A stretch of 64,000 nt of DNA, from NCBI RefSeq assembly GCF_900129505.1, contig NZ_LT670818.1, positions 2,480,001 to 2,544,000 of the forward strand, written 5' to 3'. Made by a program: the position numbers and the translations under genes. This document shows, piece after piece, positions 38,057 to 60,487 of this stretch (the first letter of the stretch is position 1; each line of letters opens with the position of its first letter). The notes below the pieces were generated by a model. That model searched no databases. It was given only the letters and a program-made list of their open reading frames with translations, and was not told where the DNA came from. This DNA comes from Bradyrhizobium erythrophlei. Its GTDB lineage: Bacteria; Pseudomonadota; Alphaproteobacteria; Rhizobiales; Xanthobacteraceae.

Positions 38057-38683
38057 TCAGGCGACGGCGAACGCTCTTTCTTTCTTGCGACGGCTGGTAA
38101 GCCAGCCAAAGCCACCGAGACCGATCAGCATCATTGTCCAGGTGGGCGGCAAGGGCGTGGCGCTGGCTTCCACCTTTTCGACGCCCCAACCTTCATCACC
38201 AAGGCCCTGAAAACCGGCGTGGTCGCCGGTCAAACTCAGGTAGGAAAAGGTGAGAGTATTCAAACCGACATTCAGCGGTAGACCGGCGAAGGTGAAAGTT
38301 TCTTTCCCACCGTTCCAGCCGATGCCCGTACCGTTGTTCGTGGGGTTAGAGAGGCTCGCTCCGAACGGATTAGAATAAACGTTAGCTTGCGATCCGCTGT
38401 TGCTGCCGCCACCGAGATTGAACGTGCCCAGAAAGACTTGCTTGTCGTTTAACTTCAACGAAAAATCATCTTCGTAGGCGTTTTTCCCGTCGAGGCTCCC
38501 GTATCCATCCAAGATGAAGGAAAGCTCCGATGTGGAAGCCCCCGAATTGAAATTCAGCGTGAAGGATTGATCGGTTGCCATAGCGGCGGAGGGCCCGTCG
38601 TAAATTATGGTGGCTTGTGCGGAGGAGACCACCAGCACCGCACACGCCAATCCAGCAATCGTCGAACGAGCTAGAAAACGCAT
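38057..38683 (-). CDS. PEP-CTERM-like surface protein
   Basis: The 208-residue protein has a signal peptide (LARSTIAGLACAVLVVSSAQA), a mature beta-rich, Gly/Asn/Ser-rich domain (FTLNFNSGASTSELSFILDG, LGTFNLGGGSNSGSQ), and a C-terminal sorting-type signal: PLPPTWTMMLIGLGGFGWL followed by the basic cluster TSRRKKER. This matches PEP-CTERM proteins, which are cut and anchored by exosortase and usually encoded with exopolysaccharide loci. GGGGAG lies seven bases before the ATG. No exosortase gene is in the window. Confidence 0.8.
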   Translation of the reverse strand: MRFLARSTIAGLACAVLVVSSAQATIIYDGPSAAMATDQSFTLNFNSGASTSELSFILDGYGSLDGKNAYEDDFSLKLNDKQVFLGTFNLGGGSNSGSQANVYSNPFGASLSNPTNNGTGIGWNGGKETFTFAGLPLNVGLNTLTFSYLSLTGDHAGFQGLGDEGWGVEKVEASATPLPPTWTMMLIGLGGFGWLTSRRKKERAFAVA

Positions 38684-39090
38684 CACATGCTCCCCCTGAT
38701 CAAAGAGATCGAACCGAATGTGATGCAATGCGGAAGATGGCAGGAGGGTACCAAACTGTAAATGAGTTTTTTTAAGCAAGCTGGACTGAAGCGAAGCGTT
38801 GCCTATCAGACCTAGGAACTCTGAATATTCTTCAGCCACCGTGTGAAGTGGCAAATAGTGCAGATATTTGCGGGTAAAAGCGGCAAGGACCGCCAGATAT
38901 TATTGGGCGACCTGCGATAGATCTGCGCAAAAGATCATCGACGGTGAGCGCTAAGTTGGCATCGCGCGCCCAAAATTGTTGCGGCGAAGGAAGCAACTCC
39001 TCGCTCGCGAGAAAGTTAACTGCGAACCAGCAAAACGCCTTAAATAGCTGGCGTGATGGGTTCGGACAATAGAATTAAGGAGAAGCGCTT
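38684..39090. other. Intergenic region upstream of the PEP-CTERM-like gene
   Basis: About 400 AT-richer bases. It should hold the promoter of the minus-strand PEP-CTERM-like gene, but I see no clear consensus. No gene supported. Confidence 0.35.
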
Positions 39091-39878: not shown

Positions 39879-40103
39879 ATGAAAAACGCTTTCCGTGTTT
39901 TACCTGCGATAGCTTTGGCCGCCGCGTTGGCGTTTCTTCCGCAGCCTTCTCTTGCCAATTGTGGTATTGACAAGGACGTGGGCAATGGCTGCGCAAAGGG
40001 CGCTCCGGCTCCTCTCCTTGGCGCTGGTCTTCCCGGTCTTGCGGCAGGCATAGGTTATGGCGCTTATTGGTTAGTGCGGCGTCGCCGCCGCAACATTGGC
40101 TAA
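39879..40103 (+). CDS. Small secreted protein with PEP-CTERM-like end
   Basis: The 74-residue protein has a signal peptide (VLPAIALAAALAFLPQPSLA), a very short mature part (NCGIDKDVGNGCAKG) with two Cys, and then PAPLLGAGLPGLAAGIGYGA with a terminal RRRRR. The Pro motif, hydrophobic helix and Arg cluster in that order form a tripartite sorting signal like the GAGLPGL variant seen on many Bradyrhizobium PEP-CTERM-like proteins. Almost nothing would remain after processing, so it may be a peptide or a pilin-like item. A strong terminator follows. Confidence 0.7.
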   Translation: MKNAFRVLPAIALAAALAFLPQPSLANCGIDKDVGNGCAKGAPAPLLGAGLPGLAAGIGYGAYWLVRRRRRNIG

Positions 40104-40149: not shown

Positions 40150-40740
40150 ATTTCGTGCTGATGTCGCCGGTCACGGGCTCCGCTTAGCATTAAACGTGCA
40201 TCGCCTTACCATCCGAAAAGTGCCGGTGCCAAAGGGCTGGGGTTGGTCGAACCCCTCAGCACCGGCCTCGCGTCGCGCTCCCAACAGCAGCGCCAGCGTC
40301 GCAATCGCGAACGATGGAAATATCAACAAAAAGTCCGATCATCAGGGCCGCCAGCATTACGTGCTGCTGGTGACCGAAGGATCAACCGTGCTTTCCGCAG
40401 TCTTGACGGCCGCCGTTGTTGCAGCTGCGCCAAGGGTCGGATGAATGGTTTTGCGATCCTTGTCCTTGATCAAGGTGAACGTTCCGACCACCGGGTCCTA
40501 TCATCCAGGGATTTTTTTCTTTCGCCCCAGATTTTTGACAGACGCCATTCGATCGCGATATGGATGCTGGCCGCGAGCGGAAGAAAAGCGGCTGCTGTTT
40601 CAGATACTTAGCGGAGCGAAAAATTCGTTGGCTCGCAATCGCTGCGGCCATAGCAGGCAATTTGGGGCATTTATTTTCTGCTTTCGTCAGAGCTGGCTAG
40701 TACCTCGACACAGAGGTTTTGACTCGTTGAAATTGGCCTG
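40150..40740. other. Intergenic region, nothing recognised
   Basis: About 590 bases between the terminator and the IS630 remnant. Open frames exist on the plus strand (40196-40444, 40243-40611) but lack ribosome-binding sites or recognisable products. Confidence 0.35.
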
Positions 40741-41085
40741 ATTTGGCTGAGGGCCTTGGATAGGCGCGCGCCATTTTGGCGCGAGCCTTTTCGGTTGTGA
40801 ACATCCATTTGATGCGGGCGCGGTCGGCATTGCGCCGTTTCTCCCAGGCGACGGTCTCGGCGACGAGGCGGACGAAACTGTCGATGCGCCGATCGAGGCA
40901 TTGGCGGGCGAGAACGCCGATCTCGATCTCGACCATGTTCAGCCAGCTGGCGTGCTTTGGGACGTAGTGGAACTCCAATCGGCGCCGTACCCGCCGTGCT
41001 TCGTCGGCCGGAAAGGCCTGGTAGAGCGCCCCGGCCGAATGGGTTGAGAGATTGTCGAGCACCAGGCGGATCCAAATATGGAGCA
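40741..41085 (-). pseudogene. IS630-family transposase, C-terminal fragment
   Basis: The minus strand reads IRLVLDNLSTHSAGALYQAF (the second catalytic Asp is in LDN), FHYVPKHASWLNMVEIEIGV (with the catalytic Glu), and FTTEKARAKMARAYP, the typical end of IS630/Tc1-like transposases. The N-terminal half, including the first Asp, is absent and replaced by unrelated sequence upstream of about 41085. The element is therefore dead. Confidence 0.85.
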
Positions 41086-41344
41086 CAGAGGCGTCCCATA
41101 TAGCGTAGTTCAGATCCTTAGCCCGCCGGGCTATAGGTGGATCGTACATATCGATGCGGATCGAACAAAAACTGGCGTGGCAATAAGCCGACCTGGAGCC
41201 ATCCGCTTGGCTGAAGTGACGATCGAGAAAATCATTCGAGCGAAATTCAACGAGGCTTCGAACCCGTGCGTTGGAAACTCGGGGCCATCGACTGCTGGAA
41301 ATCATGAACGAGGATGTCGTGGTGTCGATCGAATTGCAAAATGA

Positions 41345-44043: not shown

Positions 44044-46314
44044 CTATCTCAACACGTTCAGAGTTGTTTCACCCGCTCGCTGTTGGGGCGCTGTCATTGT
44101 TTGCTGGCGCCCGGTCCAAAATGCGGTAACGGCCAACACAAGGCCGGGTTTGATTCCGAGGCACCGCTTAATGTGAATTGCCATCGCCACATTCCAGGCG
44201 ACTAGCGTTCCCGAGGTCACAACTGCCGCTCCCATTGCGCCGTAGTGAATTGTCGTGATTGCACATCCCGCGATCGTCAGAGCCGCGAACACTAGCATAA
44301 TCGCTGCCGCCGATCGTTCATGGCCGGTCATCGTCAGCAGGTTTTGCTGCGGACCGCCAGCCGCGGCGAGGAATTGTCCCATCACCAACGTTTGGGCGAT
44401 GTGAGTATCGCCGGCAAAGTCTTGCCCGAACAAATTCAGCAGCGGGCCTGTAAGAATCAAAACAGGAAGCGCTAGCATGGCGCCACCTGCCAGCGACAGG
44501 ACGGTGGCGCGGGCGAACAGGTACTGGAGGTCAGGGAAATCACCGCGTTCGTACACCGCGGACGCAGTAGGAGAAAAGTAGATGCTGACCGCGGCCCGCG
44601 ACAGTTGGATCAGCATTGCCAGATTGAAGGCCAGCGCAAAGAGGCCCGCTTCGGAAATCCGTCCACTCCAGCCAAGCACCAGCACCCCAGTACGCGCCAT
44701 GAGGATTTCAAGACCCATCATCATCATGACCGGAAGTGCGAATGACCACCATTCACGCGGCAGATAAGTCGGCTCAATTCCCTTGATCTGCTCCGGCCAC
44801 AGCCTGATGGCGACGTAGATGACAAACACAAGCGTGGCGGCAGTACTGACAAACGACGCGACTAGGACCATCTGTGTATCCAGGGGCCAGAATTGACCCC
44901 AGGCGGCAAAGCCGACCGTCGCCAGCAGCAACCCATCACGGAACACTCGTTCGGGGAGGATGGCTGCGATGAAGCCGCCGAACACCCGAATGATGCCCGC
45001 GCCGACCAGATGCAAGGTGATCAGCGGGATAGTCGCGATGCCAATCGCCAGGCTGATCGCGAAGTTTGGCTCCAGTTCGTTCCACCGAAGCCACAGGATG
45101 ACGAGGCCTGCGATCGATGCCATTACTGCCGCCGCAAGTGCACGGCTGATCGCGAAGCGGATACTACCATACATGAGGGACCATTCGTCGGACGCTCGGT
45201 AAGCCGACGTAAAGCGCAGGACGAACGTAACCAAACCCAGCGTCGTGACATACGACAGCAGCGAAACCCAAGCCCAAACATACGAATAGATCCCATACCC
45301 ATGGGCGTGGAGCAGACGTGCGACCAAAAATTGCACGGCACAGGTCAGACCCGCACCGCAAATATAGGTGGCCAATGCCAAAATGGTGGCCCGCGTGAAA
45401 TGGTCACCTCTCCTGCCTGTGCATCGGTCCGATGCCAGTCGGGCTCCAACCGCTGCCGCTGTGGGCGGGACTGGAAACGCAAGGGCTTCGACGCTGTTGT
45501 CACATGTTTGGATGCTATCGTCACATATCATGCATCGTTGGTCAGCCTGAGTGGCGCCCGCAACTGCATGCCCTACAGCGTTTGACTTGCCTTCAAGTCT
45601 CGTGAGAATTTCCCGCTCTATCTTATCGACAACATGATCGATGGACGACGGCTCGTCGAGCTGGACGACAACCACTGGCCGTCCGTGCTTCTGCAGCAAC
45701 GCATTTACGCTCTCGATGATTGGAGCGAATTGCAGATTCGTGCTCTCCCCGGCCTCGAAGAAGCGCGCGATCACCGGCTCACTCCGCTTGCGATTGCGAA
45801 GACGGGCCTCCTGCACATCTGGATCGACCCTTACATAGACCGCAACGTCGGATTTTGGGATAAGCTTCAGAGCGCGCAGGAATACTGCCTCGTCTACGGT
45901 TCGACTGAATACTGACAGTGAGCAAACAGCCTGAATAAAGGCTTGATCGAAGACGATGATTGGATCGACATCGGATGACTGACGCCAAATCTCCGATAGC
46001 CGCAGGATATATTGGCTGACCCGAATGAACCAGACCGGGTTCCTCGGCGGCAACATGTACACCAATCGGGCTACGGCGCTGAACGCATGGCTGTGGGTGA
46101 TCGGGTGGAACGTCATCGCAACAACGCCAACGATGGCTTGACCTATCCGGCCCAAAGCATATCCTAGGCCGCCCGGATCGAAGAGGGATACTTTGTCGGG
46201 CTGGTGCACAAGGGCAATCTTGGTCGTATAGCCGCGCTCACGCAAACGACACAAAAGTGCACGAGCAAGGGTTGTTTTGCCAGCACCGGGTGGCCCGAAA
46301 AACTCGACGATCAT
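44044..46314 (-). CDS. Fusion of P-loop (thymidylate-kinase-like) kinase and Wzx-type flippase
   Basis: One 756-residue frame holds two domains. Residues 1-240 are a P-loop kinase: FFGPPGAGKTTLARALLCRL at the N-terminus, IIVFDQAFIQAVCSLSVF, DVAVYVRVDPDVQEARLRNR. Residues about 305-740 are a MOP-superfamily flippase with 12 or so membrane helices (ILALATYICGAGLTCAVQFL, WWSFALPVMMMMGLEILMAR, LLNLFGQDFAGDTHIAQTLV), which would flip lipid-linked repeat units. A linker of about 65 residues has no domain. An ATG at 45531 inside the linker could start the flippase separately, but no stop separates them. Joining these functions is unusual. Confidence 0.85.
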   Translation of the reverse strand: MIVEFFGPPGAGKTTLARALLCRLRERGYTTKIALVHQPDKVSLFDPGGLGYALGRIGQAIVGVVAMTFHPITHSHAFSAVARLVYMLPPRNPVWFIRVSQYILRLSEIWRQSSDVDPIIVFDQAFIQAVCSLSVFSRTVDEAVFLRALKLIPKSDVAVYVRVDPDVQEARLRNRKRSEPVIARFFEAGESTNLQFAPIIESVNALLQKHGRPVVVVQLDEPSSIDHVVDKIEREILTRLEGKSNAVGHAVAGATQADQRCMICDDSIQTCDNSVEALAFPVPPTAAAVGARLASDRCTGRRGDHFTRATILALATYICGAGLTCAVQFLVARLLHAHGYGIYSYVWAWVSLLSYVTTLGLVTFVLRFTSAYRASDEWSLMYGSIRFAISRALAAAVMASIAGLVILWLRWNELEPNFAISLAIGIATIPLITLHLVGAGIIRVFGGFIAAILPERVFRDGLLLATVGFAAWGQFWPLDTQMVLVASFVSTAATLVFVIYVAIRLWPEQIKGIEPTYLPREWWSFALPVMMMMGLEILMARTGVLVLGWSGRISEAGLFALAFNLAMLIQLSRAAVSIYFSPTASAVYERGDFPDLQYLFARATVLSLAGGAMLALPVLILTGPLLNLFGQDFAGDTHIAQTLVMGQFLAAAGGPQQNLLTMTGHERSAAAIMLVFAALTIAGCAITTIHYGAMGAAVVTSGTLVAWNVAMAIHIKRCLGIKPGLVLAVTAFWTGRQQTMTAPQQRAGETTLNVLR

Positions 46315-46414: not shown

Positions 46415-48589
46415 TCATGACTTCGGCTTGCTCAAGAAATCGCCGTGATCGGCAAAGCGATAGCGCGCGTGTTGGCGGAGATCCACGTCCGTCAAGACGG
46501 AGACTATCTTGTTCGGATCATTTGGATCATATTGGTCCGCCGACTGAATGAGCTGGATAGCGCTAACGGCAGTTTCACGGGGCGTAGTACCCCAACGCAC
46601 AGCGAACAGTATCTTGTCCGCTTTACTGACGAGCAGCCTCACTTCGCTGCTATCGAATATTGACGGGGCATCGACGATCACGAGATCATAGGTATCGCGG
46701 ACCTGCTCGATCAAGCTTGCAAACCCCGGGTTTGCAAGCACCGGAAGTAATTTGTTCTCGCTGCCGAAAGGCAGAAAACTAATGCAGGATCTGCCAATCG
46801 ACCCAGCGGCCGAAGCGATCGGACTTCGTTTTGCCATGACATCGGTTAAAGTGGCAACCGGAGATCGAAACTCGAGCAAACTCATTGCCTGCGTGCGAAG
46901 CGGAGAAGCTTGACCGCCCGCTTCTAGCACCAGAACCTTCCATTGAAGCTGAGCAGCGAGTAGTGCCAAACTCCAGGCGAGAGTGGTTTTCCCTTCGCCC
47001 GGAATACTTGAGGTTATCACGAAGATCTTGTGCTCCGGACCATTTCGGAATATCGGGACGCTCCCGGTAAATATCGAGCGCACCGCCTTGGAATATGGCG
47101 CGCCGGGGTGTTCGCGCAGCAGATGCGGGATTGAGTGTGCCTCGCGCGGCATCAGCCGCGGTACTAAGCCAGCACATGGAATGTGCAGGGCTTCGGCCGT
47201 CTCCCGCTCTCCGCGCAAGGTGTGATCGAGACGATCCAGAGTCAGCGAAATCATGCAGCCGAACAGGATAAATGCGACGAGCGCAGGTGGGATGAGAAAT
47301 AGTCTGTTAAACGAGGTTGGATGAATGGGTGGTTCGGCTAAGGCGAGGATCCTTATGTCGGGTTCCGCAAGTTTGCCGCGTTCGATCAGATCCTGGCGTT
47401 CTCGAAGAAGACTTTCGTAGAGCTGACCGAGCGCGGAAGCCTTGCGTTCAAGCGCTCGCAATCCAATAGTATCGTCGGTTGCCTCGGCGGCGGCATGACG
47501 GAGGAGCTCCAACCTGCTCTCGATAGATTGGATTTGAGATTGGTAGGTGCGCTGCTCTAGCTCCAGTCGAGATGTACTCGCGACGATCTCATTATCGATC
47601 GCCCGAAGAAGATCAGGTAACGGCGGATCTGCTGCATCCGAACGGCCGCGCAGTTTTCTGGCCGCGATGTTCGCCAACTCGGTCAACCGCGGCGAATCAA
47701 GCACCTTGGCTAAGTCGAGGATCGATCCGCCACCACGGCGTAAATTGCGGAACTCGTCGAGCCGCTTTTGTCCTGCATCGGTGTCGGATCTGAGCAGCGC
47801 AAGTTGGCGAGCCGTTTGCGTTATCTGCTGTTCCGTTTGATCCGGACCTGCCGCCTCATTGGCGACGTGGACCTGACGAAAAGTGTGCATCTCGGTTTCT
47901 GCACGCGCTACCTCGTCGCGTACATCGCCCAGACGCTGACTGAACCGGCTCACGGCGAGCGCGGCAGTGTCGCGCTTTTCGCGCCGAAGGGAGTTCACAT
48001 AAACCCGCGCGACGGCGTTCGCAATCTGCGCCGCTTGGTTAGGATCGCGATCATTGTAGCCAACGCTGATAATCCTGGATCGACGCTCCTGTCCAACCTT
48101 GAGCCCGCGCCGTAGCCGAGTAAGCGCGGCATTCTCTTTGAGAATTGCTGGCTTGTCTGCTCTCCCGACATCCTTCTCGTCGAGAGACCCGAGCGCTTGC
48201 AAGGCCTGCCGGAGGTTGGCGTCCGACGTTAGCGTGGTGATGTGGGTATCAATGGCAGAGTCTTCGGCGACCTGTGAGACGGCGATGGGAGCGCCAGTCA
48301 TGCCCTGGTTACTAATATCGGGCCGCTGCAAGTCAATAATGAGCTGCGCCGTGGCCAGGTACGAGGGCCCGAAGATGATCGAAGCGAGCAAAGCCAGAAT
48401 GCCGCCGGCGGCCACCGTGTAAACAATCACGCGGCGACGGCGTTGTAACGTATTGAAGATGCGCTTGATAGCCTCGGCACCGTCTACTGGCTCGGCGGCG
48501 CGTGCGATCCGGGCCGCGGCTTCGAGTTGCCTGATTTCTTGCGCCGCAAGAAGTTGCGATCTTCTGTGCTCATCACTGAATGCGTCCAA
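46415..48589 (-). CDS. Wzc/GumC-like chain-length protein with degenerate kinase domain
   Basis: The 724-residue inner-membrane protein has a first helix (residues 54-73), a periplasmic Wzz domain and coiled coil (about 215-400), and a second helix (430-450). The cytosolic BY-kinase-like domain has Walker A SSIPGEGKTT (527-536) and Walker B DLVIVDAP (635-642). Walker A' reads KVLVLEAGGQ (551-560) where active kinases have VLLIDxDxR, and the C-terminus lacks a tyrosine cluster (ends ADHGDFLSKPKS). It should set polymer length with the ExoF-like partner, but probably without tyrosine autophosphorylation. Six bases after asnB. Confidence 0.87.
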   Translation of the reverse strand: MDAFSDEHRRSQLLAAQEIRQLEAAARIARAAEPVDGAEAIKRIFNTLQRRRRVIVYTVAAGGILALLASIIFGPSYLATAQLIIDLQRPDISNQGMTGAPIAVSQVAEDSAIDTHITTLTSDANLRQALQALGSLDEKDVGRADKPAILKENAALTRLRRGLKVGQERRSRIISVGYNDRDPNQAAQIANAVARVYVNSLRREKRDTAALAVSRFSQRLGDVRDEVARAETEMHTFRQVHVANEAAGPDQTEQQITQTARQLALLRSDTDAGQKRLDEFRNLRRGGGSILDLAKVLDSPRLTELANIAARKLRGRSDAADPPLPDLLRAIDNEIVASTSRLELEQRTYQSQIQSIESRLELLRHAAAEATDDTIGLRALERKASALGQLYESLLRERQDLIERGKLAEPDIRILALAEPPIHPTSFNRLFLIPPALVAFILFGCMISLTLDRLDHTLRGERETAEALHIPCAGLVPRLMPREAHSIPHLLREHPGAPYSKAVRSIFTGSVPIFRNGPEHKIFVITSSIPGEGKTTLAWSLALLAAQLQWKVLVLEAGGQASPLRTQAMSLLEFRSPVATLTDVMAKRSPIASAAGSIGRSCISFLPFGSENKLLPVLANPGFASLIEQVRDTYDLVIVDAPSIFDSSEVRLLVSKADKILFAVRWGTTPRETAVSAIQLIQSADQYDPNDPNKIVSVLTDVDLRQHARYRFADHGDFLSKPKS

Positions 48590-48595
48590 GATTCG

Positions 48596-50611
48596 CTACC
48601 CCTGATGCATGTTGAAAGTTTGTGTCGGGAGCGGGCGTGGCAATGCGGCAAGGGAGTCCGTTGGCGATGCGGCAACAGAGTCCAGCCAAGCCTGCAGCAT
48701 GAGAGCTGCCCACAGCACGCGTGAGTGGTCGCGTGTCCCATTGAGATGATCGCGCCAACATGACTTGACGAGAGAGACGTCAAGCAGCCCCTGTTTGCGC
48801 AGGCGTGTCTCGGAGAGAAGATCGGATGCCCACGCGCGCAGTGGTCCCTTGAGCCACGCGCCGATCGGAACATTAAATCCCTGCTTCGGCCGTTCGAACT
48901 GGTGCCGCGGCAAGTAGCGAGCGAGGACCTGGCGCAGAATCCATTTGCCTTGGCCATTCCGTATCTTGGTGTTGGTGGGCAGTCGCCATGCAAACTCGAT
49001 CACTCTGTGATCGAGCATCGGGCACCGAGCTTCCAGGCTCGTGGACATGCTGGCACGATCGAGCTTTACGAGAATATCGCTCGGCAGGTATTCGGCCATA
49101 TCACGGAACAGAAATTGCGACAGCGGCTCGTCGAGCTCTGGCCCGTCATTGCCGGTCTCAGGCTCGCCAGACAGGGCCAGCGAAAGCTCCGAAAGTCGAG
49201 TCATTTCGTCATAAATGGCCCGCTCATCGCTCGCGGCCAGAATCTTTGCGAAGCGACTGACCCGGGCGGTTTGCAACAGGGGGGAGCCGAGACTCGGAAG
49301 CGTTACGACATTAGCAAATCTGGCGTATGTACCGCTAGCCACTCGAGCCGCGAGTTTTGCGGCCGTCCGCCGGAGCGATCGATTGGAACCGAGGAGGTGG
49401 GCTACGCGAGCCATGACAACGTGCCGGGTATATCCTGCAAAGCATTCGTCGCCGCCGTCGCCGCTCAGAGCCACCGTTACGTGTTTTTGTGCCTCGCGCG
49501 AAATCAGCAAGGTTGGGATTTGAGATTCGTCGGCGAAAGGTTCGTCCCATATCGCAGGCAGTGATGGAATGACATCGAGGGCGTCGGCTGAGGTCAAGCG
49601 CACTTCCGTATGATCGGTCCCGAAGTGGCGGGCAACGGACGCGGCGTAGGACGATTCGTCATATGCCTGTTCATCAAAGGCGACGGTAAATGTTCGGACC
49701 GGCTGCGAAGATTGAGCCTGCATCAGAGCAACCACAGTGGAGCTATCAAGTCCGCCTGATAAAAATGCTCCGACAGGCACATCCGCCACCATGCGCTCGC
49801 GGACAGCGGCGCGAAGCACCTCATCGAGTTTGACTATGAGGTCGGCATCCGGGTCCGGGAGAGGGTCCATCCGCGACCTCTGCGCCAACCCGCTCAACGA
49901 CCACCATGTCCGAATGTTGCAATGTATTTTATCGAGGTCGACCTGATCCGAGAGATCTTCCGGCCGTAGTGAGAGCAGCCCGGCGGGCGGGAGCTTGAAG
50001 ACGTTCGACCAGATGCAGTGTTCGTCGGGAACTCTGCCGCGCGAGAGCAGGGCAGCGACGGCGGGCAAACTTAGATCGGAGTCGGCCGCAGAGCACGCAT
50101 GGATGGCTTTCAGCTCCGAGGCAAATACAACGCCCGATGGGATCTTGGCCACGTAGAGCGGCTTTTTTCCCATGCGATCTCGAGCCAAATGGAGGATGCG
50201 GGTGTTCCGATCCCAGAGAGCCATCGCAAACATTCCGTTGCTGCGCTTAAGAGCGGACTCGAGGCCCCAGCACTCGATGGCGCACAGCAGTACTTCGGTG
50301 TCACTGCCGCCCCGAAATCGATAGCCGAGATCCACCAGTTGTTGGCGCAGTGTTCGGAAATTGTATATTTCGCCGTTAAAAGTGATCACGAACCGTCCAG
50401 TGGACGAATGCATCGGCTGGTGTCCGGCGTCGGTCAGGTCAATGATGGCAAGACGGCGATGCCCCAAAGTGATGCCAGCTTCGCGATCGCTCCAGAATCC
50501 TTCACCGTTTGGGCCGCGGTGGCGCATAGCATCTGTCATCCGGACAATCGCACGCGGGTCAGTCGCGCCGAGATAGCGCTGAGACGACAGGATACCTGCG
50601 ATGCCGCACAT
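48596..50611 (-). CDS. asnB: Asparagine synthase (glutamine-hydrolysing) of the polysaccharide locus
   Basis: The 671-residue protein begins MCGIAGILSS with the N-terminal nucleophile Cys of class II glutamine amidotransferases, then FNGEIYNFRTLRQQL and RGGSDTEVLL. The C-terminal synthetase has GAFLSGGLDSSTVVALM, the ATP-binding motif, and VALSGDGGDECFAGYTRHV. The reaction amidates Asp using Gln and ATP. Copies in polysaccharide loci are thought to amidate sugar carboxylates or tailor precursors. It lies one base after the O-antigen ligase gene's stop, so translation is coupled. Confidence 0.92.
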   Translation of the reverse strand: MCGIAGILSSQRYLGATDPRAIVRMTDAMRHRGPNGEGFWSDREAGITLGHRRLAIIDLTDAGHQPMHSSTGRFVITFNGEIYNFRTLRQQLVDLGYRFRGGSDTEVLLCAIECWGLESALKRSNGMFAMALWDRNTRILHLARDRMGKKPLYVAKIPSGVVFASELKAIHACSAADSDLSLPAVAALLSRGRVPDEHCIWSNVFKLPPAGLLSLRPEDLSDQVDLDKIHCNIRTWWSLSGLAQRSRMDPLPDPDADLIVKLDEVLRAAVRERMVADVPVGAFLSGGLDSSTVVALMQAQSSQPVRTFTVAFDEQAYDESSYAASVARHFGTDHTEVRLTSADALDVIPSLPAIWDEPFADESQIPTLLISREAQKHVTVALSGDGGDECFAGYTRHVVMARVAHLLGSNRSLRRTAAKLAARVASGTYARFANVVTLPSLGSPLLQTARVSRFAKILAASDERAIYDEMTRLSELSLALSGEPETGNDGPELDEPLSQFLFRDMAEYLPSDILVKLDRASMSTSLEARCPMLDHRVIEFAWRLPTNTKIRNGQGKWILRQVLARYLPRHQFERPKQGFNVPIGAWLKGPLRAWASDLLSETRLRKQGLLDVSLVKSCWRDHLNGTRDHSRVLWAALMLQAWLDSVAASPTDSLAALPRPLPTQTFNMHQG

Positions 50612-50612
50612 C

Positions 50613-51866
50613 TCATCTCCTCGTGTTTAGCGCCGGCGATAAACGAAGCTGAGCGCATCCCGTGGATACGCAAAGGGCCATTGCAAACCAGACAATGGGA
50701 TGTCGGATGATCAAGTGGGCGGTACTGAAGATCGTGACGGCGATCACTAGTACGAGGAGCGCATCAAGTTTCGCGCGGTATAGCAGCAGGGCGGTACTCG
50801 CAACTAGCCCAGCGAGGGCGCCCAACCCGATGATGCCCCCCTGGAGAAAGACGTCGAGAGGCGTGTTGTGAGCCTCGAACGGGTTGTCGCGGTTATGGAC
50901 AACGTCGGGCGGATCGAGATGTGGCCCAGGTCCCAGGCCGAGCGAGCCAGAGCGCGCACCGAGCTCGATCGCTTGCTCCCATAGGTGAAGCCGGAGGTCC
51001 AATGTGCGCTCTGAGGCCGCTCCTCCCTTGTCCTTGGCCAAACTTAATGCAAAATCTTCAGCATCGCTGGCGCCCGCTTTCGCGAATGGCCACAGGGACA
51101 CGGCCGCCGGAACGACGAATATCAACGCGAGAAGTACGAACGCGTAACGAAGACCGGAGCGAGAGCTGGCAGTCGAGACCGAGCGACGCAACTGCAGTCC
51201 GACCAGGAGCGCGCCCGAAAAGATCATCACGGAAATGAACGTGTCGCTCTTCGAAAGGCGGCCGGCGACAAGCGGTCCCACCGCGGCCAGGAGCCCGAAA
51301 AGACAGCCGAATCCCGTTGACGTTGACGCCAGATGGACCGCTAGCAAAGTGGTGACGCAACACACTATCGCTAGCTGATTGGGATTTTCTGCCCATCCGC
51401 GAAAGCGGTCCCAATACCATGGCTCTACGGACGGAAGGTGAATGATCTCCCAGCCTGCAGCAATCTGGGCGGCAATACCAATATTCCAAAACAGCATCAA
51501 CAGCCACGCCGCACGACGAAAGTGCACGGGCTCATCGGCGATGGCTACAGCAAGGCAGGTCATCGTCGCCATCAGCAGGTACGCGAAAGTGTCGTGCAGT
51601 GACAAGTCGGTGGCGACGCGGTATTCGACGATGAAACCAACGAGGGCCCCGATGCTCAAGGCGAATGCAAAGAGGCCCCAGAACGTGGCGAGCCGATAGA
51701 GTGCCGCAACATGCGTTGAGCTGCGGCGGGCGAGCAAGTCGAAGACACAAATTAGGATCCACAGAACGATCAATAAATCGCCGAGACCGAGAGGCAAACC
51801 GGAAAACCGCCACTGCGTTGCCGATGACAGAGAAATGCCGAGAGCAAGAAGCGCGTCCCGCGTCAT
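50613..51866 (-). CDS. O-antigen ligase/Wzy-like polymerase
   Basis: A 417-residue inner-membrane protein with about ten helices (LGDLLIVLWILICVFDLLA, LALIFVVPAAVSLWPFA, LGALAGLVASTALLLYRAKL). The large periplasmic loop near the C-terminus includes GLGPGPHLDPPDVVHNRDNP followed by FEAHNTPLDVFLQGGIIGLG, the Wzy_C/WaaL signature with the His in AHNT. It should polymerise or ligate lipid-linked repeat units. Its start overlaps the GT4 stop by four bases and its stop precedes asnB by one base. Confidence 0.88.
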   Translation of the reverse strand: MTRDALLALGISLSSATQWRFSGLPLGLGDLLIVLWILICVFDLLARRSSTHVAALYRLATFWGLFAFALSIGALVGFIVEYRVATDLSLHDTFAYLLMATMTCLAVAIADEPVHFRRAAWLLMLFWNIGIAAQIAAGWEIIHLPSVEPWYWDRFRGWAENPNQLAIVCCVTTLLAVHLASTSTGFGCLFGLLAAVGPLVAGRLSKSDTFISVMIFSGALLVGLQLRRSVSTASSRSGLRYAFVLLALIFVVPAAVSLWPFAKAGASDAEDFALSLAKDKGGAASERTLDLRLHLWEQAIELGARSGSLGLGPGPHLDPPDVVHNRDNPFEAHNTPLDVFLQGGIIGLGALAGLVASTALLLYRAKLDALLVLVIAVTIFSTAHLIIRHPIVWFAMALCVSTGCAQLRLSPALNTRR

Positions 51867-53077
51867 GACATGCCGCCAGTATCAATAGTGGAATGGCTGG
51901 ACGAGGTGAGTTGGAGTTCACCTTCGCTTCCAGTCCTGTCGCCCGCAATGTGGCATTTCACGACTCGTTCGTAGATGCGGGCATACTGGCCCACGATGGT
52001 GTCCAGGCTAAACTTGCGCCGCACTAGGGATATTGAACGCTGACCCATGACCGCGGCGGTGGTCTGTTCATGCAGCAGATCCAGGATGCGTCTGGCCAGG
52101 CGCTGTGGGTCGCGCGGTGGTACGAGATACCCGTTCCAGCCATCGGTCACTACATCGGCACAACCCGGCATCCGCGTCGTCACGATCGGCAGGCCGGCAA
52201 GTCCTGCTTCAAGCAGCACACGTGGAATGCCTTCGCGATATTCGGACGGGAAAGCGAAGACGTCAGCCTGCCGTAGTAACGCTGGCACGTCGGTCCGCAC
52301 CCCGAGCGCAGTTACATAGGGTCTGCGACGCTCGATCTCTTCCTGCGGCACTGCAAACGGGCCCTCGCTCTCCCGCGGACCGACGAGGATAAAGCGCACT
52401 TCGGGAAGTGCGGTGTGAACGATATCGGCCGCCCGTAGAAGAGTGAGTATGCCTTTCTGTTTTGTCAGCCGACTTACGGTTATGACAACGCCAGCGTCGC
52501 TAGCTCTGCGTCTCTCCCGTCCGGCTGCGTCGGAAGGGGCGGCGGTTGGAAACGCGTCGATTTCTATGCCCGATCCGCCGATCAAGTATCCCGGGCTGTG
52601 TCCCAGCAGCCTATATCGCTCGAAGAATTTCTTGTCGTCTCGGTTCTGAAAAACTGTACCAGCGGTCCAGCGCGCGGCGACGCGCTGAAGTGCGCAATAG
52701 ATTGGGCGCAGAGCAAGGGTGTACAAACTGGTGGATGAGAAAACCCAACCCATGCCGTTGATCGTGCGAAGGATTGGGGCTGCATGCCTGACAGCAAATG
52801 GAACCAATAGGTTAGGTTTCGTATCAAAAGCTTGAATGAGGTCCGGCTGTACGTCACGCACGAGTCGGGCGAGACAGCGCAGTTCCGAGCGGGGAAAGGT
52901 ATGCGCATCAAATCGATCAAACTGGTATTGACGGTACTCTATCTCGGCACGAGAAAAAGGTGACGGATCGCCGGTACCCGCCGCGGTAACGCGAAAACCG
53001 CGCTGCCTCAAGGCAATCAGAAAGGGAATGCGGAGATGGTGATCCTCGCCTCCGACGCAGAATAGATGGGGCTTCAT
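51863..53077 (-). CDS. GT4 family glycosyltransferase
   Basis: The 404-residue cytosolic protein has a GT-B fold. The N-terminal half starts HLFCVGGEDHHLRIPFLIAL and has LIQAFDTKPNLLVPFAVRHA; the donor-binding half has VITVSRLTKQKGILTLLRAA, FILVGPRESEGP, and the motif FAFPSEYREGIPRVLLEAGL with the two Glu residues of GT4 retaining enzymes. It resembles glycosyltransferases such as PglA/WcaL-type enzymes of repeat-unit assembly. First gene of the minus-strand operon. Confidence 0.9.
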   Translation of the reverse strand: MKPHLFCVGGEDHHLRIPFLIALRQRGFRVTAAGTGDPSPFSRAEIEYRQYQFDRFDAHTFPRSELRCLARLVRDVQPDLIQAFDTKPNLLVPFAVRHAAPILRTINGMGWVFSSTSLYTLALRPIYCALQRVAARWTAGTVFQNRDDKKFFERYRLLGHSPGYLIGGSGIEIDAFPTAAPSDAAGRERRRASDAGVVITVSRLTKQKGILTLLRAADIVHTALPEVRFILVGPRESEGPFAVPQEEIERRRPYVTALGVRTDVPALLRQADVFAFPSEYREGIPRVLLEAGLAGLPIVTTRMPGCADVVTDGWNGYLVPPRDPQRLARRILDLLHEQTTAAVMGQRSISLVRRKFSLDTIVGQYARIYERVVKCHIAGDRTGSEGELQLTSSSHSTIDTGGMS

Positions 53078-56278: not shown

Positions 56279-56838
56279 CCTGAGGCGGCGAAGCATCTGC
56301 CGGAGCCGGAAAACAATCTGCCGGGAGCTCGCGCCCCCTGTGCTCAAGGCCTGGCGCCCTCCGAGGGTCTTGTCGCGGCCCCAAAAAGCCGACGGCCATC
56401 TCTCGCCGAGCTTACCCGCTGATCCAGTTTTGCTCCTTTACCGATCGCTCGGCCGCGTCCGGTTCATGCGACGCAGTCAAAGCCGCGATGAAGCAGACCA
56501 CGCGGCATGACCGCGCGTTTTTCCATAACGTCTTGCGCCAGCTCTCTAGGCTCGACCCTACCTGCAGGGATGGGTTTGCGTGGCGACATCAGAATCCGAT
56601 GTCACTGCCGGATCCGAAAGCACGTCATAGTGCAAACGCATGAAGACAACACAGCAGCATGCCGGTATCAATGCGTAAATGCTTAAGCGAGCAGATTTGT
56701 TAGAGTGCGCACTCGAGGGTTCATTTCGGCCGCATCGATCCGAGTAGCCGACATTCCTTTCAGGTCGTCGCGGAAGATGCGCGGGCGGGCTAGCCAGATG
56801 ATGCTTTGTTATGGCGGCCGATTGGAAGGGAGTTCGAG
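56279..56838. other. Upstream region of the plus-strand polysaccharide operon
   Basis: About 560 bases without a supported gene. It should carry the operon promoter and binding sites for the nearby LuxR-type regulators, but no specific site is evident by eye. Confidence 0.4.
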
Positions 56839-57558
56839 ATGAAAGCGGTCATTCAATGTGGTGGAAGAGGCATGCGCTTGCGGCCTTACACGTCAATTTT
56901 GCCAAAGCCACTTATGCCCATTGGGTCGAGACCGGTACTAGAACTCCTCCTGAAGTGGCTCCGTCGTAACGGTATCCATGAAGTCTTTATCACCACCGGC
57001 TATCTCGGAAATTTGATCCGCAGTTTTTGCAGCGATGGCCACCAATGGAACATTGAAATCACCTACACGCAGGAAATTGAGCCGCTCGGCACGATCGGGC
57101 CGCTTTCGCTGCTGCGCGACCAATTGAACGAACCGTTTCTAGTGCTCAATGGCGATATACTAACCGACCTCAATCTTAATCAGTTCGTAAAGAGCCATCG
57201 ACTTCACGGGACTCAGTTGACGATCGCGTCAGCTGTTCGTCACTCCAAAATGGAGTTCGGCGTCCTTGAGGAGACGGATGGAACAGTGACTGGTTTCCGC
57301 GAGAAGCCGATGCTAGCCAGCCGTGTGAGCATGGGTCTTTATTGCATGAACCCTGAGATCATGAACTACGTCCCTACGGGCGTTCCGTTCGGATTCGATG
57401 ATTTGGTGTTGCAGATGCTCGAGCACGGCACGCCGATTCACACTTTCAGGCATGACGGGCTTTGGCTCGACATTGGTCGGGCCGAGGACTTCCATAAAGC
57501 CCAGGACATCGCATGGGACGAACAGTCGCCGGCGCTGCCTGTTGAAGCCGCCGCCTAA
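56839..57558 (+). CDS. Sugar-1-phosphate nucleotidyltransferase
   Basis: The 239-residue protein activates a sugar phosphate with an NTP. The signature reads QCGGRGMRLRPYTSILPKPL, with Met at the usual Thr position of GGxGTRL, then VFITTGYLGNLI, NGDILTDLNLNQF with the metal Asp, and FREKPMLASRVSMGLYCMNP. The ATG at 56839 lies six bases after AAGGGAG; an upstream start at 56806 is unlikely. It leads the operon with the aminotransferase and 4,6-dehydratase, so it likely makes the nucleotide sugar they use. Confidence 0.88.
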   Translation: MKAVIQCGGRGMRLRPYTSILPKPLMPIGSRPVLELLLKWLRRNGIHEVFITTGYLGNLIRSFCSDGHQWNIEITYTQEIEPLGTIGPLSLLRDQLNEPFLVLNGDILTDLNLNQFVKSHRLHGTQLTIASAVRHSKMEFGVLEETDGTVTGFREKPMLASRVSMGLYCMNPEIMNYVPTGVPFGFDDLVLQMLEHGTPIHTFRHDGLWLDIGRAEDFHKAQDIAWDEQSPALPVEAAA

Positions 57559-57618
57559 CGGCATCAGGCTTGGCCGGAGCCGGCGCTTAAACCTGGCCCG
57601 GCGAGTGGGAGGAGTCCC

Positions 57619-58755
57619 GTGCTGTTAGTGTCGAAACCCATTCTCGGTATGGAAGAAAAAGCCGCTCTCTCTGAAGTGGTCGACAGTGGTTGGATCACGA
57701 TGGGCGAGAGGGTGCGTGAATTTGAGTTAGCCTTCGCGCGTCTACACAAGGCAGAGGATTCGCTCGCCGTAAGTTCCTGTACCGCGGCATTGCATTTGAT
57801 TCTGCATGCTTTGGAGATCGGCCCCGGTGATGAGGTCTTGGTCCCTTCGATGACATTCGTGGCAACGGCTAACTGCATTCTTTACGTCGGTGCGACCCCT
57901 GTTTTTGTCGACATTGAGTCGGATCATGTCCCACTCATCTCAATCGAGGATGCTGAAGCTAAGTGTACATCGCGGACCAGGGCCGTCATCTTGATGCACT
58001 ATGCGGGATATCTGGCGGACCGGGGTGCCTGGCAAGCCTTTGCGCGTCGGAGAGGTTTGTTCTTAATCGAAGATGCCGCTCATGCGCCCGGGCGAGTAGA
58101 AGTAGGCACCTATGGAGTAGCTGCCGCGTTCAGCTTCTACGGCAACAAGAACTTGACCACGGCGGAGGGTGGAGCCGTCATCGCGAGCGATCGCACCTTG
58201 CTGGAAACCATGCGGCAGATGCGCGGGCACGGCATGACGAGCGGGACTTATCAGAGGCTCACAAGCCGCAATCCGAACTATGACGTGACTATGCTCGGGT
58301 TCAACTATCGAATGGACGAACTCCGGGCCGCCGTCGGATTGGTGCAGTTAAGGAAACTGACGGACTGGAACGACACCAGAGGCCGCCTCACTGAGCTTTA
58401 CCGCCGCCTGATCGCCGAACGTTGTCCTTCGGTCAGCATTCCGTTCGGAGAACCCAGGATCTCGACGTACCACATCATGCCAGTTCTGCTTCCGGAGGCG
58501 GCGATACGGAGTACCGTAATCGATCAGCTCCGCCAACGCGGAATTCAGACGACGATCCACTACCCGCCGGTGCATCGGCTGAGTTTTTTCCGAACAAAGT
58601 GTCCCAATACGGACTTGCCGTGCACCGAGGATTTTGCGCACCGAGAATTGACACTTCCTCTCCACCCCGACTTGCAACCGGAGGCCGTCGAAACCGTGGT
58701 GATGCGCCTAGCCGCCGCCGTTGGATCACCTCGGAATTTGTTGGCTGCCGAATGA
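57619..58755 (+). CDS. DegT/DnrJ/EryC1 family sugar aminotransferase
   Basis: The 378-residue PLP enzyme transfers an amino group to a keto-sugar nucleotide. It has SSCTAALHLILHALEIGPGD, VPSMTFVATANCILYVGATP, LIEDAAHAPG, and the PLP Lys177 in FYGNKNLTTAEGG. GFNYRMDELRAAVGLVQL is the dimer-interface motif. The GTG at 57619 follows GGAGG. With the LegB-like dehydratase downstream it would give a 4-amino-4,6-dideoxy sugar (inference). The stop overlaps the next start (ATGA). Confidence 0.92.
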   Translation: MLLVSKPILGMEEKAALSEVVDSGWITMGERVREFELAFARLHKAEDSLAVSSCTAALHLILHALEIGPGDEVLVPSMTFVATANCILYVGATPVFVDIESDHVPLISIEDAEAKCTSRTRAVILMHYAGYLADRGAWQAFARRRGLFLIEDAAHAPGRVEVGTYGVAAAFSFYGNKNLTTAEGGAVIASDRTLLETMRQMRGHGMTSGTYQRLTSRNPNYDVTMLGFNYRMDELRAAVGLVQLRKLTDWNDTRGRLTELYRRLIAERCPSVSIPFGEPRISTYHIMPVLLPEAAIRSTVIDQLRQRGIQTTIHYPPVHRLSFFRTKCPNTDLPCTEDFAHRELTLPLHPDLQPEAVETVVMRLAAAVGSPRNLLAAE

Positions 58756-59483
58756 GCCGCGAGGACCCCCAACTTGCGGATGGCGCGGGCGTCGCTTGCT
58801 GCGAGGCCCCAATGCAACGTGCCTTCGATCTCTGCTTCGCTTCGGTGACGTTGATCCTCCTCGCTCCTGTCATGCTGTTGATCGCTCTTTTCATATGGGT
58901 GCACTCTGGCCGCCCGATTTATTTTTCGCAGCTCCGGCTAGGACGCCGCGGGCAGCTATTCTATCTCTACAAATTCCGGAAATTCTACGCAGACTGTGAT
59001 GTGAATGGCACTCCACTAACGCTGCGAGACGATCATCGACTCACGGCGATCGGCAGAATTCTGGCGCTGACCAAGGCCGATGAACTGCCACAGTTCTGGA
59101 ACGTGATCAAAGGCGAGATGTCGATTGTCGGACCTCGGCCCGAGTCCCTTGTATTCGCTGACTGCTTCAGAAACGGTTTCGAGCGGGTGCTTGATTGCAG
59201 GCCAGGGCTGTTCGGTCCTTCTCAGGCGTTGTTTCGTCACGAAGACCAGTTCTTTCCGACGAATGCCGATCCGGTGGAGTTTTACCGCGCATTCCTGTTT
59301 CCGGCGAAAGCCAAGATCGATATCGACTATTTCTCGCGGCGTTCTCTCTTCGGGGACATTGGCTGGATCATTCGCTGTCTGTTGGCCGTCATCGGGCTGA
59401 ATTCATCAGTTCGTCTGGGAGGCGGCGAATTGGGCTTCACTCAAGCAATAGCGCCACAGAAACTCGATGGAGTAGGGTCGTGA
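58752..59483 (+). CDS. Phosphoglycosyl transferase (undecaprenyl-phosphate sugar transferase)
   Basis: The 243-residue membrane-associated enzyme starts repeat-unit assembly by moving a sugar phosphate to undecaprenyl phosphate. One N-terminal helix (LCFASVTLILLAPVMLLIAL) is followed by the catalytic part: YLYKFRKFYADCD, LTKADELPQFWNVIKGEMSI and VGPRPES. The C-terminal part (PGLFGPSQALFRHEDQFF) resembles monotopic bacterial sugar transferases of the ExoY/PglC class. The ATG overlaps the aminotransferase stop by four bases. Its partner sugar is probably the product of the flanking genes. Confidence 0.92.
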   Translation: MSREDPQLADGAGVACCEAPMQRAFDLCFASVTLILLAPVMLLIALFIWVHSGRPIYFSQLRLGRRGQLFYLYKFRKFYADCDVNGTPLTLRDDHRLTAIGRILALTKADELPQFWNVIKGEMSIVGPRPESLVFADCFRNGFERVLDCRPGLFGPSQALFRHEDQFFPTNADPVEFYRAFLFPAKAKIDIDYFSRRSLFGDIGWIIRCLLAVIGLNSSVRLGGGELGFTQAIAPQKLDGVGS

Positions 59484-60487
59484 GATACGTGGGGGCCAGG
59501 GCGCTGGTGACAGGCGCAGACGGATTCATCGGATCTCATCTGACAGAGGCGCTTGTTCAAGGTGGGGCCGACGTTACCGCTCTCGCACTTTATAATTCGT
59601 TCGACAGCTTTGGCTGGCTCGACGATTTGTCTGACGAGATCAGGGCGAAAATCAAGCTGGTCCGGGGGGATGTTCGCGATTCCGCTCTCGTCGACCGGAT
59701 CGTGGAAGGCCAGGATATCGTATTCCACCTGGCTGCGTTGATCGCCATCCCCTATTCATACGCTGCGCCGCAGGCGTATGTTGAAACCAATATCCTCGGA
59801 ACCTTGAACGTTCTGGAGGCGGCGCGCCGGCATGGGACGAGGCGCGTCATTCACACCTCTACAAGTGAAGTGTATGGCACGGCATTAACAATGCCTATCG
59901 ACGAAACTCATCCCCTTCAGGGGCAGTCTCCGTATTCGGCGTCCAAGATCGGCGCGGACATGATGGCGGAGGCCTTTGCCAGGTCTTTCGGAGTACCGGT
60001 GGTCATCCTGAGGCCATTCAATACCTACGGGCCGCGGCAGAGCGAGCGCGCTATCGTTCCGGCGCTGCTGCGCCAAATCCTAGATGCGCGATGCACGTCG
60101 GTTATGGTTGGGGACACGACAACCGTGCGCGACCTGACGTTTGTCAACGACACGGTTAGGGCCTTCATGGCCGCAGGCTCGGCAAACGAGATCGAGTACG
60201 GCGGCGCGTACAATGCCGGCAGTCAGAGGTCGATCAAGGTGGCGGAACTCGTCGACATTGCGATGGAGCTGACGTCCTGCAAGAAACCGGTGAGAAGGGA
60301 CGGTGCACGATTGCGCCCCCCCAACTCGGAAGTAAGAGCGCTGCTTGCTAACGCGCGTCACTTTCAGCAAGCGACAGGATGGGAGCCGCGTATTCCTTTA
60401 CGAGAAGGCCTTCAGCATACGATCGCCTGGTGGCAAGCCCGGCTGTCGGGAGGAGTCGTACGCCGACACAAGGATCTTGTGACTTGA
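59480..60487 (+). CDS. LegB-like NAD-dependent nucleotide-sugar 4,6-dehydratase
   Basis: The 335-residue short-chain dehydrogenase has VTGADGFIGSHLTEALVQGG (Rossmann), LYNSFDSFGWLDDL, VFHLAALIAIPYSYAAPQAY, and the catalytic YSASK. The LYNSF..GWLD segment after strand 2 is typical of the LegB (UDP-GlcNAc 4,6-dehydratase) subgroup. It would make the 4-keto-6-deoxy sugar for the aminotransferase two genes upstream. The GTG at 59480 overlaps the previous stop as GTGA. No legionaminate synthase (LegI-type) gene is seen, so the end product is likely a 4-amino sugar, not legionaminate. Confidence 0.9.
   Translation: MRYVGARALVTGADGFIGSHLTEALVQGGADVTALALYNSFDSFGWLDDLSDEIRAKIKLVRGDVRDSALVDRIVEGQDIVFHLAALIAIPYSYAAPQAYVETNILGTLNVLEAARRHGTRRVIHTSTSEVYGTALTMPIDETHPLQGQSPYSASKIGADMMAEAFARSFGVPVVILRPFNTYGPRQSERAIVPALLRQILDARCTSVMVGDTTTVRDLTFVNDTVRAFMAAGSANEIEYGGAYNAGSQRSIKVAELVDIAMELTSCKKPVRRDGARLRPPNSEVRALLANARHFQQATGWEPRIPLREGLQHTIAWWQARLSGGVVRRHKDLVT

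What the first reader, a model, noticed from the sequence alone, without database searches (positions are those of the whole stretch)
44044..46314. Single-polypeptide P-loop kinase and Wzx-type flippase
A thymidylate-kinase-like domain with a complete GPPGAGKTT motif is fused in frame to a full flippase. I know of no described system that joins a kinase to a lipid-linked oligosaccharide flippase. It could phosphorylate a sugar, a lipid carrier or a nucleotide at the site of flipping, or use ATP to gate transport. This is the best candidate for an undescribed system in the window.
Basis: partly seen in the sequence, partly recalled or inferred. Interest (0 to 1): 0.8.

Follow-up and report, generated by a model that had tools for sequence, protein, structure and literature searches.

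The report
Kinase fused to a sugar flippase
A soil bacterium carries one protein that joins a sugar-carrier flipping pump to a kinase-like enzyme; relatives carry the same two parts fused or as neighbouring genes, which suggests the exported sugar unit is phosphorylated just before it crosses the membrane.

The parts
44044..46314 (-). fused gene: P-loop kinase - linker - MOP/Wzx flippase, 756 aa
45595..46314 (-). kinase domain, residues 1-240, thymidylate-kinase fold
46270..46296 (-). Walker A / P-loop GPPGAGKTT, residues 7-15
   Evidence: G7, G12, K13 in 62 of 62 rows, T14 and T15 in 61 of 62
45931..45948 (-). D123-Q124 ... Q128 motif, where thymidylate kinases carry Asp-Arg
   Evidence: D123 62 of 62; 124 is Q in 55 and E in 7, never R; Q128 in 56; own tmk reads DR there (placed by eye)
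45415..45582 (-). linker, residues 245-300, predicted disordered, variable
   Evidence: pLDDT mostly about 30; mean column identity 0.30 against 0.61 kinase and 0.66 flippase; dN/dS 0.31-1.35 in 7 pairs of relatives
44080..45414 (-). flippase domain, residues 301-745
   Evidence: Pfam Polysacc_synt 29.6 bits, cut-off 28.2; Foldseek: MATE, WzxE, MurJ
46415..48589 (-). Wzz/Wzc-like chain-length protein with BY-kinase-type ATPase domain
   Evidence: Pfam Wzz 29.0 (cut-off 25.5), AAA_31 29.0 bits (cut-off 27)
48596..50611 (-). AsnB-type glutamine amidotransferase
   Evidence: Pfam Asn_synthase 388.5 bits
50613..51866 (-). Wzy polymerase / O-antigen ligase type
   Evidence: Pfam Wzy_C 43.3 bits, cut-off 31.7
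51863..53077 (-). GT4 glycosyltransferase
   Evidence: Pfam Glyco_trans_1_4 113.9 bits
43147..43947 (-). SAM-dependent methyltransferase next to the fusion
   Evidence: Pfam Methyltransf_25 46 bits
58422..59483 (+). initiating sugar-phosphate transferase (Bac_transf)
   Evidence: Pfam 153.9 bits
61764..63029 (+). outer-membrane export protein (Poly_export/SLBB)
   Evidence: Poly_export 51.8 bits, cut-off 28; SLBB 20.2, below its cut-off
56806..60487 (+). nucleotide-sugar genes: NTP_transferase, DegT aminotransferase, SDR dehydratase (LegB/PseC-like), around the Bac_transf gene
   Evidence: the LegB and PseC models score below their cut-offs

Best explanation
This is the Wzx-type flippase of a Wzx/Wzy-dependent exopolysaccharide locus, carrying at its N terminus a small-molecule P-loop kinase of thymidylate-kinase fold. 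The most likely working: the kinase uses ATP to phosphorylate a hydroxyl of the undecaprenyl-diphosphate-linked repeat unit, or of a substituent on it, at the inner face. The tethered flippase then takes up the phosphorylated unit and flips it for Wzy polymerisation, so that decoration is coupled to export. SHOWN by sequence: the fusion, its conservation as a fusion or adjacent gene pair, purifying selection on both domains in relatives, conserved ATP-site residues, the EPS locus; by prediction: the fold. INFERRED: catalytic activity, the nature of the acceptor, the cytoplasmic side (from the N-in topology of MOP flippases, recalled), and any selectivity of the flippase for phosphorylated units.
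For: Linkage: 14 fused and 14 directly downstream among 32 kinase-found loci; the same 16 of 265 genomes hold this kinase and this flippase clade, flippase scores 522 bits or more against 238.5 for the next best (the profile was built largely from kinase-linked flippases, so the size of the gap is partly by construction). On the kinase tree the change between fused and split needs 3 steps if only true adjacent pairs count as split, 4 if every non-fused locus does, so the pair stays together through repeated fusion or fission. Kinase dN/dS 0.10-0.19 in 7 of 7 pairs of fused relatives. G7, G12, K13, R56, W110, D123, R175 in 62 of 62 rows; the two loci without a flippase nearby have EE for DQ and lack Q101, Y102, R105. 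Loss of Asp-Arg argues for an acceptor other than a nucleoside monophosphate. Fifteen of 32 loci also carry a protein family (8 copies scanned) with a weak NTP_transf_5 match in 6 and a C-terminal P-loop domain with a DR motif in 8, which would fit phospho-decoration chemistry. Precedent: the MOP flippase TacF checks the phosphocholine on its substrate through the phosphate groups (PMC13385700, abstract and passages).
Against: No acceptor identified and no measured activity. No polysaccharide structure from these organisms was looked for. The transmembrane-charge test is weak: net +1.79 in 43 kinase-linked against +1.14 in 29 unlinked flippases, p 0.003, but rows are not independent, the linked set has fewer K/R (5.1 against 5.8), and the unlinked set has conserved charges of its own that the linked set lacks. 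Two of 32 loci have the kinase without a flippase in the stretch (L091, L092; a diverged branch), and L036 and L090 pair it with another flippase type. L035, a fused copy, has an altered P-loop, GKAV; L080, linked, also lacks Q101, R105 and Q128. Gene X is absent from the window's locus, and its genome has no PF14907 match.
Confidence: 0.4

Rival explanations
1. The kinase makes a soluble phosphorylated precursor (a sugar 1-phosphate or a substituent phosphate) that is later activated and transferred. The fusion serves co-expression or local supply, and the flippase does not see the phosphate.
For: TMK-fold kinases act on small soluble substrates (family knowledge, recalled). 15 of 32 loci hold a putative NTase-kinase gene within 6 kb. 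A diverged kinase branch exists away from any flippase.
Against: A soluble-precursor enzyme has no need to be fused to, or directly upstream of, the flippase in 28 of 32 loci; a place beside sugar-nucleotide genes would serve as well.
Confidence: 0.27
2. ATP binding or hydrolysis by the P-loop domain gates or energises the flippase, with no small-molecule acceptor.
For: Fusion and tight linkage; P-loop conserved.
Against: Residues outside the P-loop (R56, W110, D123, R175) are as conserved as the P-loop lysine, and the predicted fold is a phosphotransferase fold. MOP flippases work without an ATPase (recalled).
Confidence: 0.13
3. The kinase phosphorylates the carrier lipid (undecaprenol or its phosphate) at the flippase.
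For: It sits at the flippase; an NMP-kinase-fold enzyme that acts on an isoprenoid phosphate is known (phosphomevalonate kinase, recalled).
Against: Carrier recycling would be wanted in every Wzx locus, yet no kinase of this family was found in 249 of 265 genus genomes (10 candidates scored per genome). Whether the model could hold a lipid was not tested.
Confidence: 0.08
4. It is a nucleotide kinase (dTMP or UMP to diphosphate) supplying or recycling nucleotides for sugar activation.
Against: A normal tmk, 166 bits, lies elsewhere in the genome; dTMP_kinase model 18.8 bits against cut-off 83.25; no Arg after D123 in 62 of 62.
Confidence: 0.07
5. Chance in-frame joining of two neighbouring operon genes, without functional coupling.
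For: In the 14 split pairs the genes overlap or lie within 58 bp, so a joined frame is easily made.
Against: 32 of 36 other hits are full-length fusions, and the pair persists through at least 3 changes between fused and split.
Confidence: 0.05

Closest known systems
MOP-superfamily lipid flippases (Wzx, WzxE, MurJ)
   Same: Fold of residues 301-745: WzxE 9g9n TM-score 0.74 on the target, plus MATE and MurJ; Pfam Polysacc_synt over cut-off; sits in a Wzx/Wzy locus.
   Different: Carries a 240-aa kinase domain and linker in front. R391, R456 and R541 are conserved in 86-100% of 43 linked flippases and in 0, 0 and 10% of 29 unlinked ones.
TacF of Streptococcus pneumoniae (gatekeeper flippase) with LicA/LicC/LicD
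   Same: A MOP flippase whose substrate bears a phospho-decoration made on the cytoplasmic side by a kinase-started pathway (PMC13385700, abstract and passages).
   Different: There the kinase LicA is a separate protein with a protein-kinase-like fold (PMC4364537, search-listing abstract) and phosphorylates choline; here the kinase is TMK-fold and fused or adjacent.
Thymidylate kinase and deoxynucleoside kinases
   Same: Predicted fold and P-loop.
   Different: Asp-Arg replaced by Asp-Gln/Glu; below both curated thymidylate-kinase cut-offs; distinct housekeeping tmk present.
WbdD of E. coli O9a (kinase-methyltransferase)
   Same: A kinase that phosphorylates a polyprenol-linked glycan, with a methyltransferase (PMC3482155, abstract).
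   Different: Eukaryotic-type kinase, ABC-transporter pathway. Here the methyltransferase next to the fusion recurs within 6 kb in 1 of the 31 other loci (L091) and farther off in L081.

Membership tests
MOP/Wzx flippase | Polysacc_synt sequence profile | tested here: met
   29.6 bits over cut-off 28.2
MOP/Wzx flippase | MATE/MurJ/Wzx fold | tested here: met
   49 of the 50 Foldseek rows listed are named MATE, WzxE, MurJ or other MOP; one is named only 'protein A'
MOP/Wzx flippase | moves lipid-linked oligosaccharide across the membrane | not testable with these tools
   needs complementation or transport assay
Wzx/Wzy-dependent EPS locus | initiating transferase, flippase, Wzy, PCP and OPX together | tested here: met
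   Bac_transf, Polysacc_synt, Wzy_C, Wzz/AAA_31, Poly_export all over Pfam cut-offs in the window
Thymidylate kinase | overall fold | tested here: met
Thymidylate kinase | curated sequence model | tested here: not met
   TIGR00041 18.8 of 83.25 bits; PF02223 22.5 of 27 bits
Thymidylate kinase | Asp-Arg motif that binds the nucleotide phosphate | tested here: not met
   R at 124 in 0 of 62 rows; own tmk has DR; equivalence placed by eye, role of the Arg recalled
P-loop small-molecule kinase | Walker A and catalytic Asp intact | tested here: met
   62 of 62 for G7, G12, K13, D123; T14 and T15 61 of 62; that D123 is catalytic is inferred from the fold
TacF-like phosphate gatekeeper | flippase rejects substrate lacking the phospho-group | not testable with these tools
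   TM-charge comparison weak and not decisive
WbdD-like kinase-methyltransferase | eukaryotic-type kinase domain joined to methyltransferase | tested here: not met
   kinase predicted with TMK fold; the rest of the polypeptide is linker and flippase

The most novel reading that the evidence does not exclude
A kinase-coupled flippase: one polypeptide phosphorylates the lipid-linked sugar repeat and flips only the phosphorylated form, making phosphorylation an export licence built into the transporter. In the papers searched here no such quality control is described for Wzx/Wzy systems; the kinase would be a new TMK-fold family of Hyphomicrobiales.
Probability: 0.33. Interest if true: 0.78.

Novelty: new variant of a known kind. 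Interest (0 to 1): 0.6.

Why it matters
How Wzx flippases select their cargo, and whether they check for finished decoration, is an open question. A flippase that carries its own kinase, with natural fused and split versions in relatives, gives a direct test: mutate one lysine and ask whether unphosphorylated units still cross. It also marks a kinase family without a described function and, if the reading is right, predicts phosphorylated exopolysaccharides in Bradyrhizobium, Tardiphaga, Mesorhizobium and relatives.

Tried and rejected
Housekeeping thymidylate kinase: rejected. Assembly error joining two genes: rejected. WbdD-type phospho-methyl cap as the general mechanism: the methyltransferase next to the fusion recurs within 6 kb in 1 of 31 other loci and farther off in L081. 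Charge of the transmembrane core as proof of anionic cargo: weak; the linked set held 28 loci and 15 of the 32 database fusions, rows not independent. Spread beyond the order: class sample 1 of 385 genomes, the window's own (only 6 candidates per genome were scored, so distant members can be missed). Named organisms in the hit lists are Bradyrhizobium, Tardiphaga, Mesorhizobium, Chelatococcus, Rhodoblastus, Labrys, a Hyphomicrobiales MAG and one MAG named only Pseudomonadota; I looked up the lineage of Tardiphaga alone. Plasmids: the Chelatococcus daeguensis match spans an annotated AAA ATPase and an annotated oligosaccharide flippase; Mesorhizobium AR07 has a kinase match near one end and a flippase match at the other, listed on opposite strands, not resolved (no region fetched). 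HHalign of the kinase alignment to the own tmk aligns P-loop and lid but misplaces the Asp-Arg stretch; I placed that by eye. PDB by sequence gave only P-loop-sized matches. Ten paper searches were made; seven were aimed at the fusion and the listed titles and abstract starts show nothing on it (one search lists 20 of 71). Passages of PMC12419801 on flippase and kinase do not describe it. The library lacks most subscription journals.

Full report
WHAT IS THERE. The frame at 44044..46314 (-) starts with ATG, has 756 codons and no stop. It is unbroken in the source genome, a single 9.18-Mb contig. The genus is Bradyrhizobium by this chain: protein P0032, named by its source as Bradyrhizobium sp. 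CB3481, is read exactly from locus L079 of genome G258, which shares the window's genus.

CONSERVED AS A FUSION. A search of 5.8 billion proteins gave 37 hits, one of them the window's own. Of the other 36, 32 cover 96-99% of the query and are 689-795 aa long, 39-70% identical to the window protein. Four shorter ones (P0014, P0015, P0017, P0037) were left out of the alignment. Sources name some of the fusions 'O-antigen/teichoic acid export membrane protein/thymidylate kinase' or 'oligosaccharide flippase family protein'; I take these as automatic names.

SPLIT VERSIONS AND LINKAGE. With the kinase domain alone as query, 125 proteins of 133-349 aa were found (120 listed; some lie on contigs so short that they may be cut pieces of fusions). 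A profile of 56 rows found the kinase in 16 of 265 genomes of the genus, 11 of 397 in an order sample, two of them already in the genus, 1 of 385 in a class sample, the window's own, and 2 of 151 in the family of G564; 6 to 17 candidates per genome were scored, so these are lower bounds. I fetched 27 stretches of up to 20 kb and used the named loci L032-L036; without L032, a duplicate of L084, and with the window, this makes 32 loci. In 14 the flippase is fused; in 14 it is the next gene on the same strand, from 130 bp overlap to 58 bp gap with ORFs taken from their first start codon; in L090 a flippase of another type (Polysacc_synt_3) follows after 235 bp; in L036 a flippase lies about 6 kb upstream in the same locus; L091 and L092 show none in the stretch. 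Within the genus, 5 of the 16 are fused and 11 split. A flippase profile (12 of its 14 rows are split-locus flippases, one is the window's) searched in the same 265 genomes gives exactly these 16 at 522 bits or more, and the next best is 238.5 bits; the gap is partly by construction, and co-inheritance in one locus is not a set of independent events.

EVOLUTION. On a tree of 64 kinase domains (32 loci, 32 database fusions), fused against not fused needs 4 changes, also when only strongly supported branches count. Four of the rows called split there (L036, L090, L091, L092) have no adjacent flippase of this type; without them 3 changes remain. Direction is open. NG86 dN/dS in 7 pairs of fused genes: kinase 0.10-0.19, flippase 0.07-0.22, linker 0.31-1.35. 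None of the pairs includes the window gene.

ACTIVE SITE. Among 62 rows (64 less L091 and L092): G7, G12, K13, R56, W110, D123 and R175 in 62; T14 and T15 in 61; position 124 is Q in 55 and E in 7, never R; Q101 in 60; R105 in 55; R171 in 57. L035 is the P-loop exception, and L080 lacks Q101, R105 and Q128. L091 and L092 have EE for DQ and lack Q101, Y102 and R105. The own tmk reads DR at the equivalent place (by eye).

LOCUS. In the window: initiating transferase, nucleotide-sugar genes, OPX protein, GT4, Wzy, AsnB-type amidotransferase, Wzz/Wzc-like protein, fusion, methyltransferase. Within 6 kb of the kinase in the 32 loci: Wzc-like 27, Wzy 26, GT4 22, gene X 15, AsnB-type 14. Eight of the 15 copies of gene X were scanned: six show a weak NTP_transf_5 match (16-30 bits, cut-off 31.2), L036 and L085 none; all eight align and share a C-terminal P-loop and a DR motif. 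X is directly upstream of the kinase in 12 and downstream of the flippase in 3. X and the AsnB-type gene occur together only in L066 and both are missing in 4 loci, so they look like alternatives. The window's genome has no PF14907 match.

MECHANISM. The stable pairing of one kinase clade with one flippase clade suggests that the kinase product is what the flippase handles. TacF shows that a MOP flippase can read phospho-decoration through phosphate groups (PMC13385700, abstract and passages); Wzx of P. aeruginosa has a cationic lumen for anionic units (PMC3412221, abstract). A test of core charge here is weak. I therefore hold phosphorylation of the lipid-linked unit at the inner face, coupled to flipping, as the most likely working (0.4), ahead of a soluble-precursor role (0.27).

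NOVELTY. The parts are of known kinds; their union does not appear in the listings of the seven searches aimed at it. Hence a new variant of a known kind, with a possible new coupling principle.

Noticed in passing
L066:7868-9403 and relatives in 15 of 32 loci: Gene X: an NTP_transf_5-like region (weak match in 6 of 8 copies scanned) joined to a second P-loop domain with a DR motif, mostly directly upstream of the kinase-flippase pair, nearly exclusive with the AsnB-type gene.
   Followed up: partly
window 38057-38854 (-): PEP-CTERM protein near the exopolysaccharide locus (22.9 bits, cut-off 20.7); the only exosortase match in the genome lies elsewhere, G000:C1:5334652-5335410.
   Followed up: partly
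window 39879-40103 (+): 74-aa ORF with signal-like start and a C-terminal hydrophobic stretch followed by RRRRR, resembling a sorting tail.
   Followed up: no
L032:12240-15008, L082:5348-8233, L083, L092:2359-5115: A single-module protein with AMP-binding and thioesterase domains (scanned in L032 and L092; weak carrier-domain match in L032), directly downstream of the fusion in L032/L084, L082 and L083, near the kinase in L092.
   Followed up: no
L091, L092 (and L065): A diverged kinase branch without flippase, with EE for DQ; L091 sits beside a homolog of the window's methyltransferase, with a kinase fragment nearby.
   Followed up: partly
window 40697-41305 (-): DDE_3 transposase piece at the edge of the exopolysaccharide region.
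   Followed up: no
L035: A fused copy whose P-loop reads GKAV instead of GKTT, possibly a degenerating kinase.
   Followed up: no
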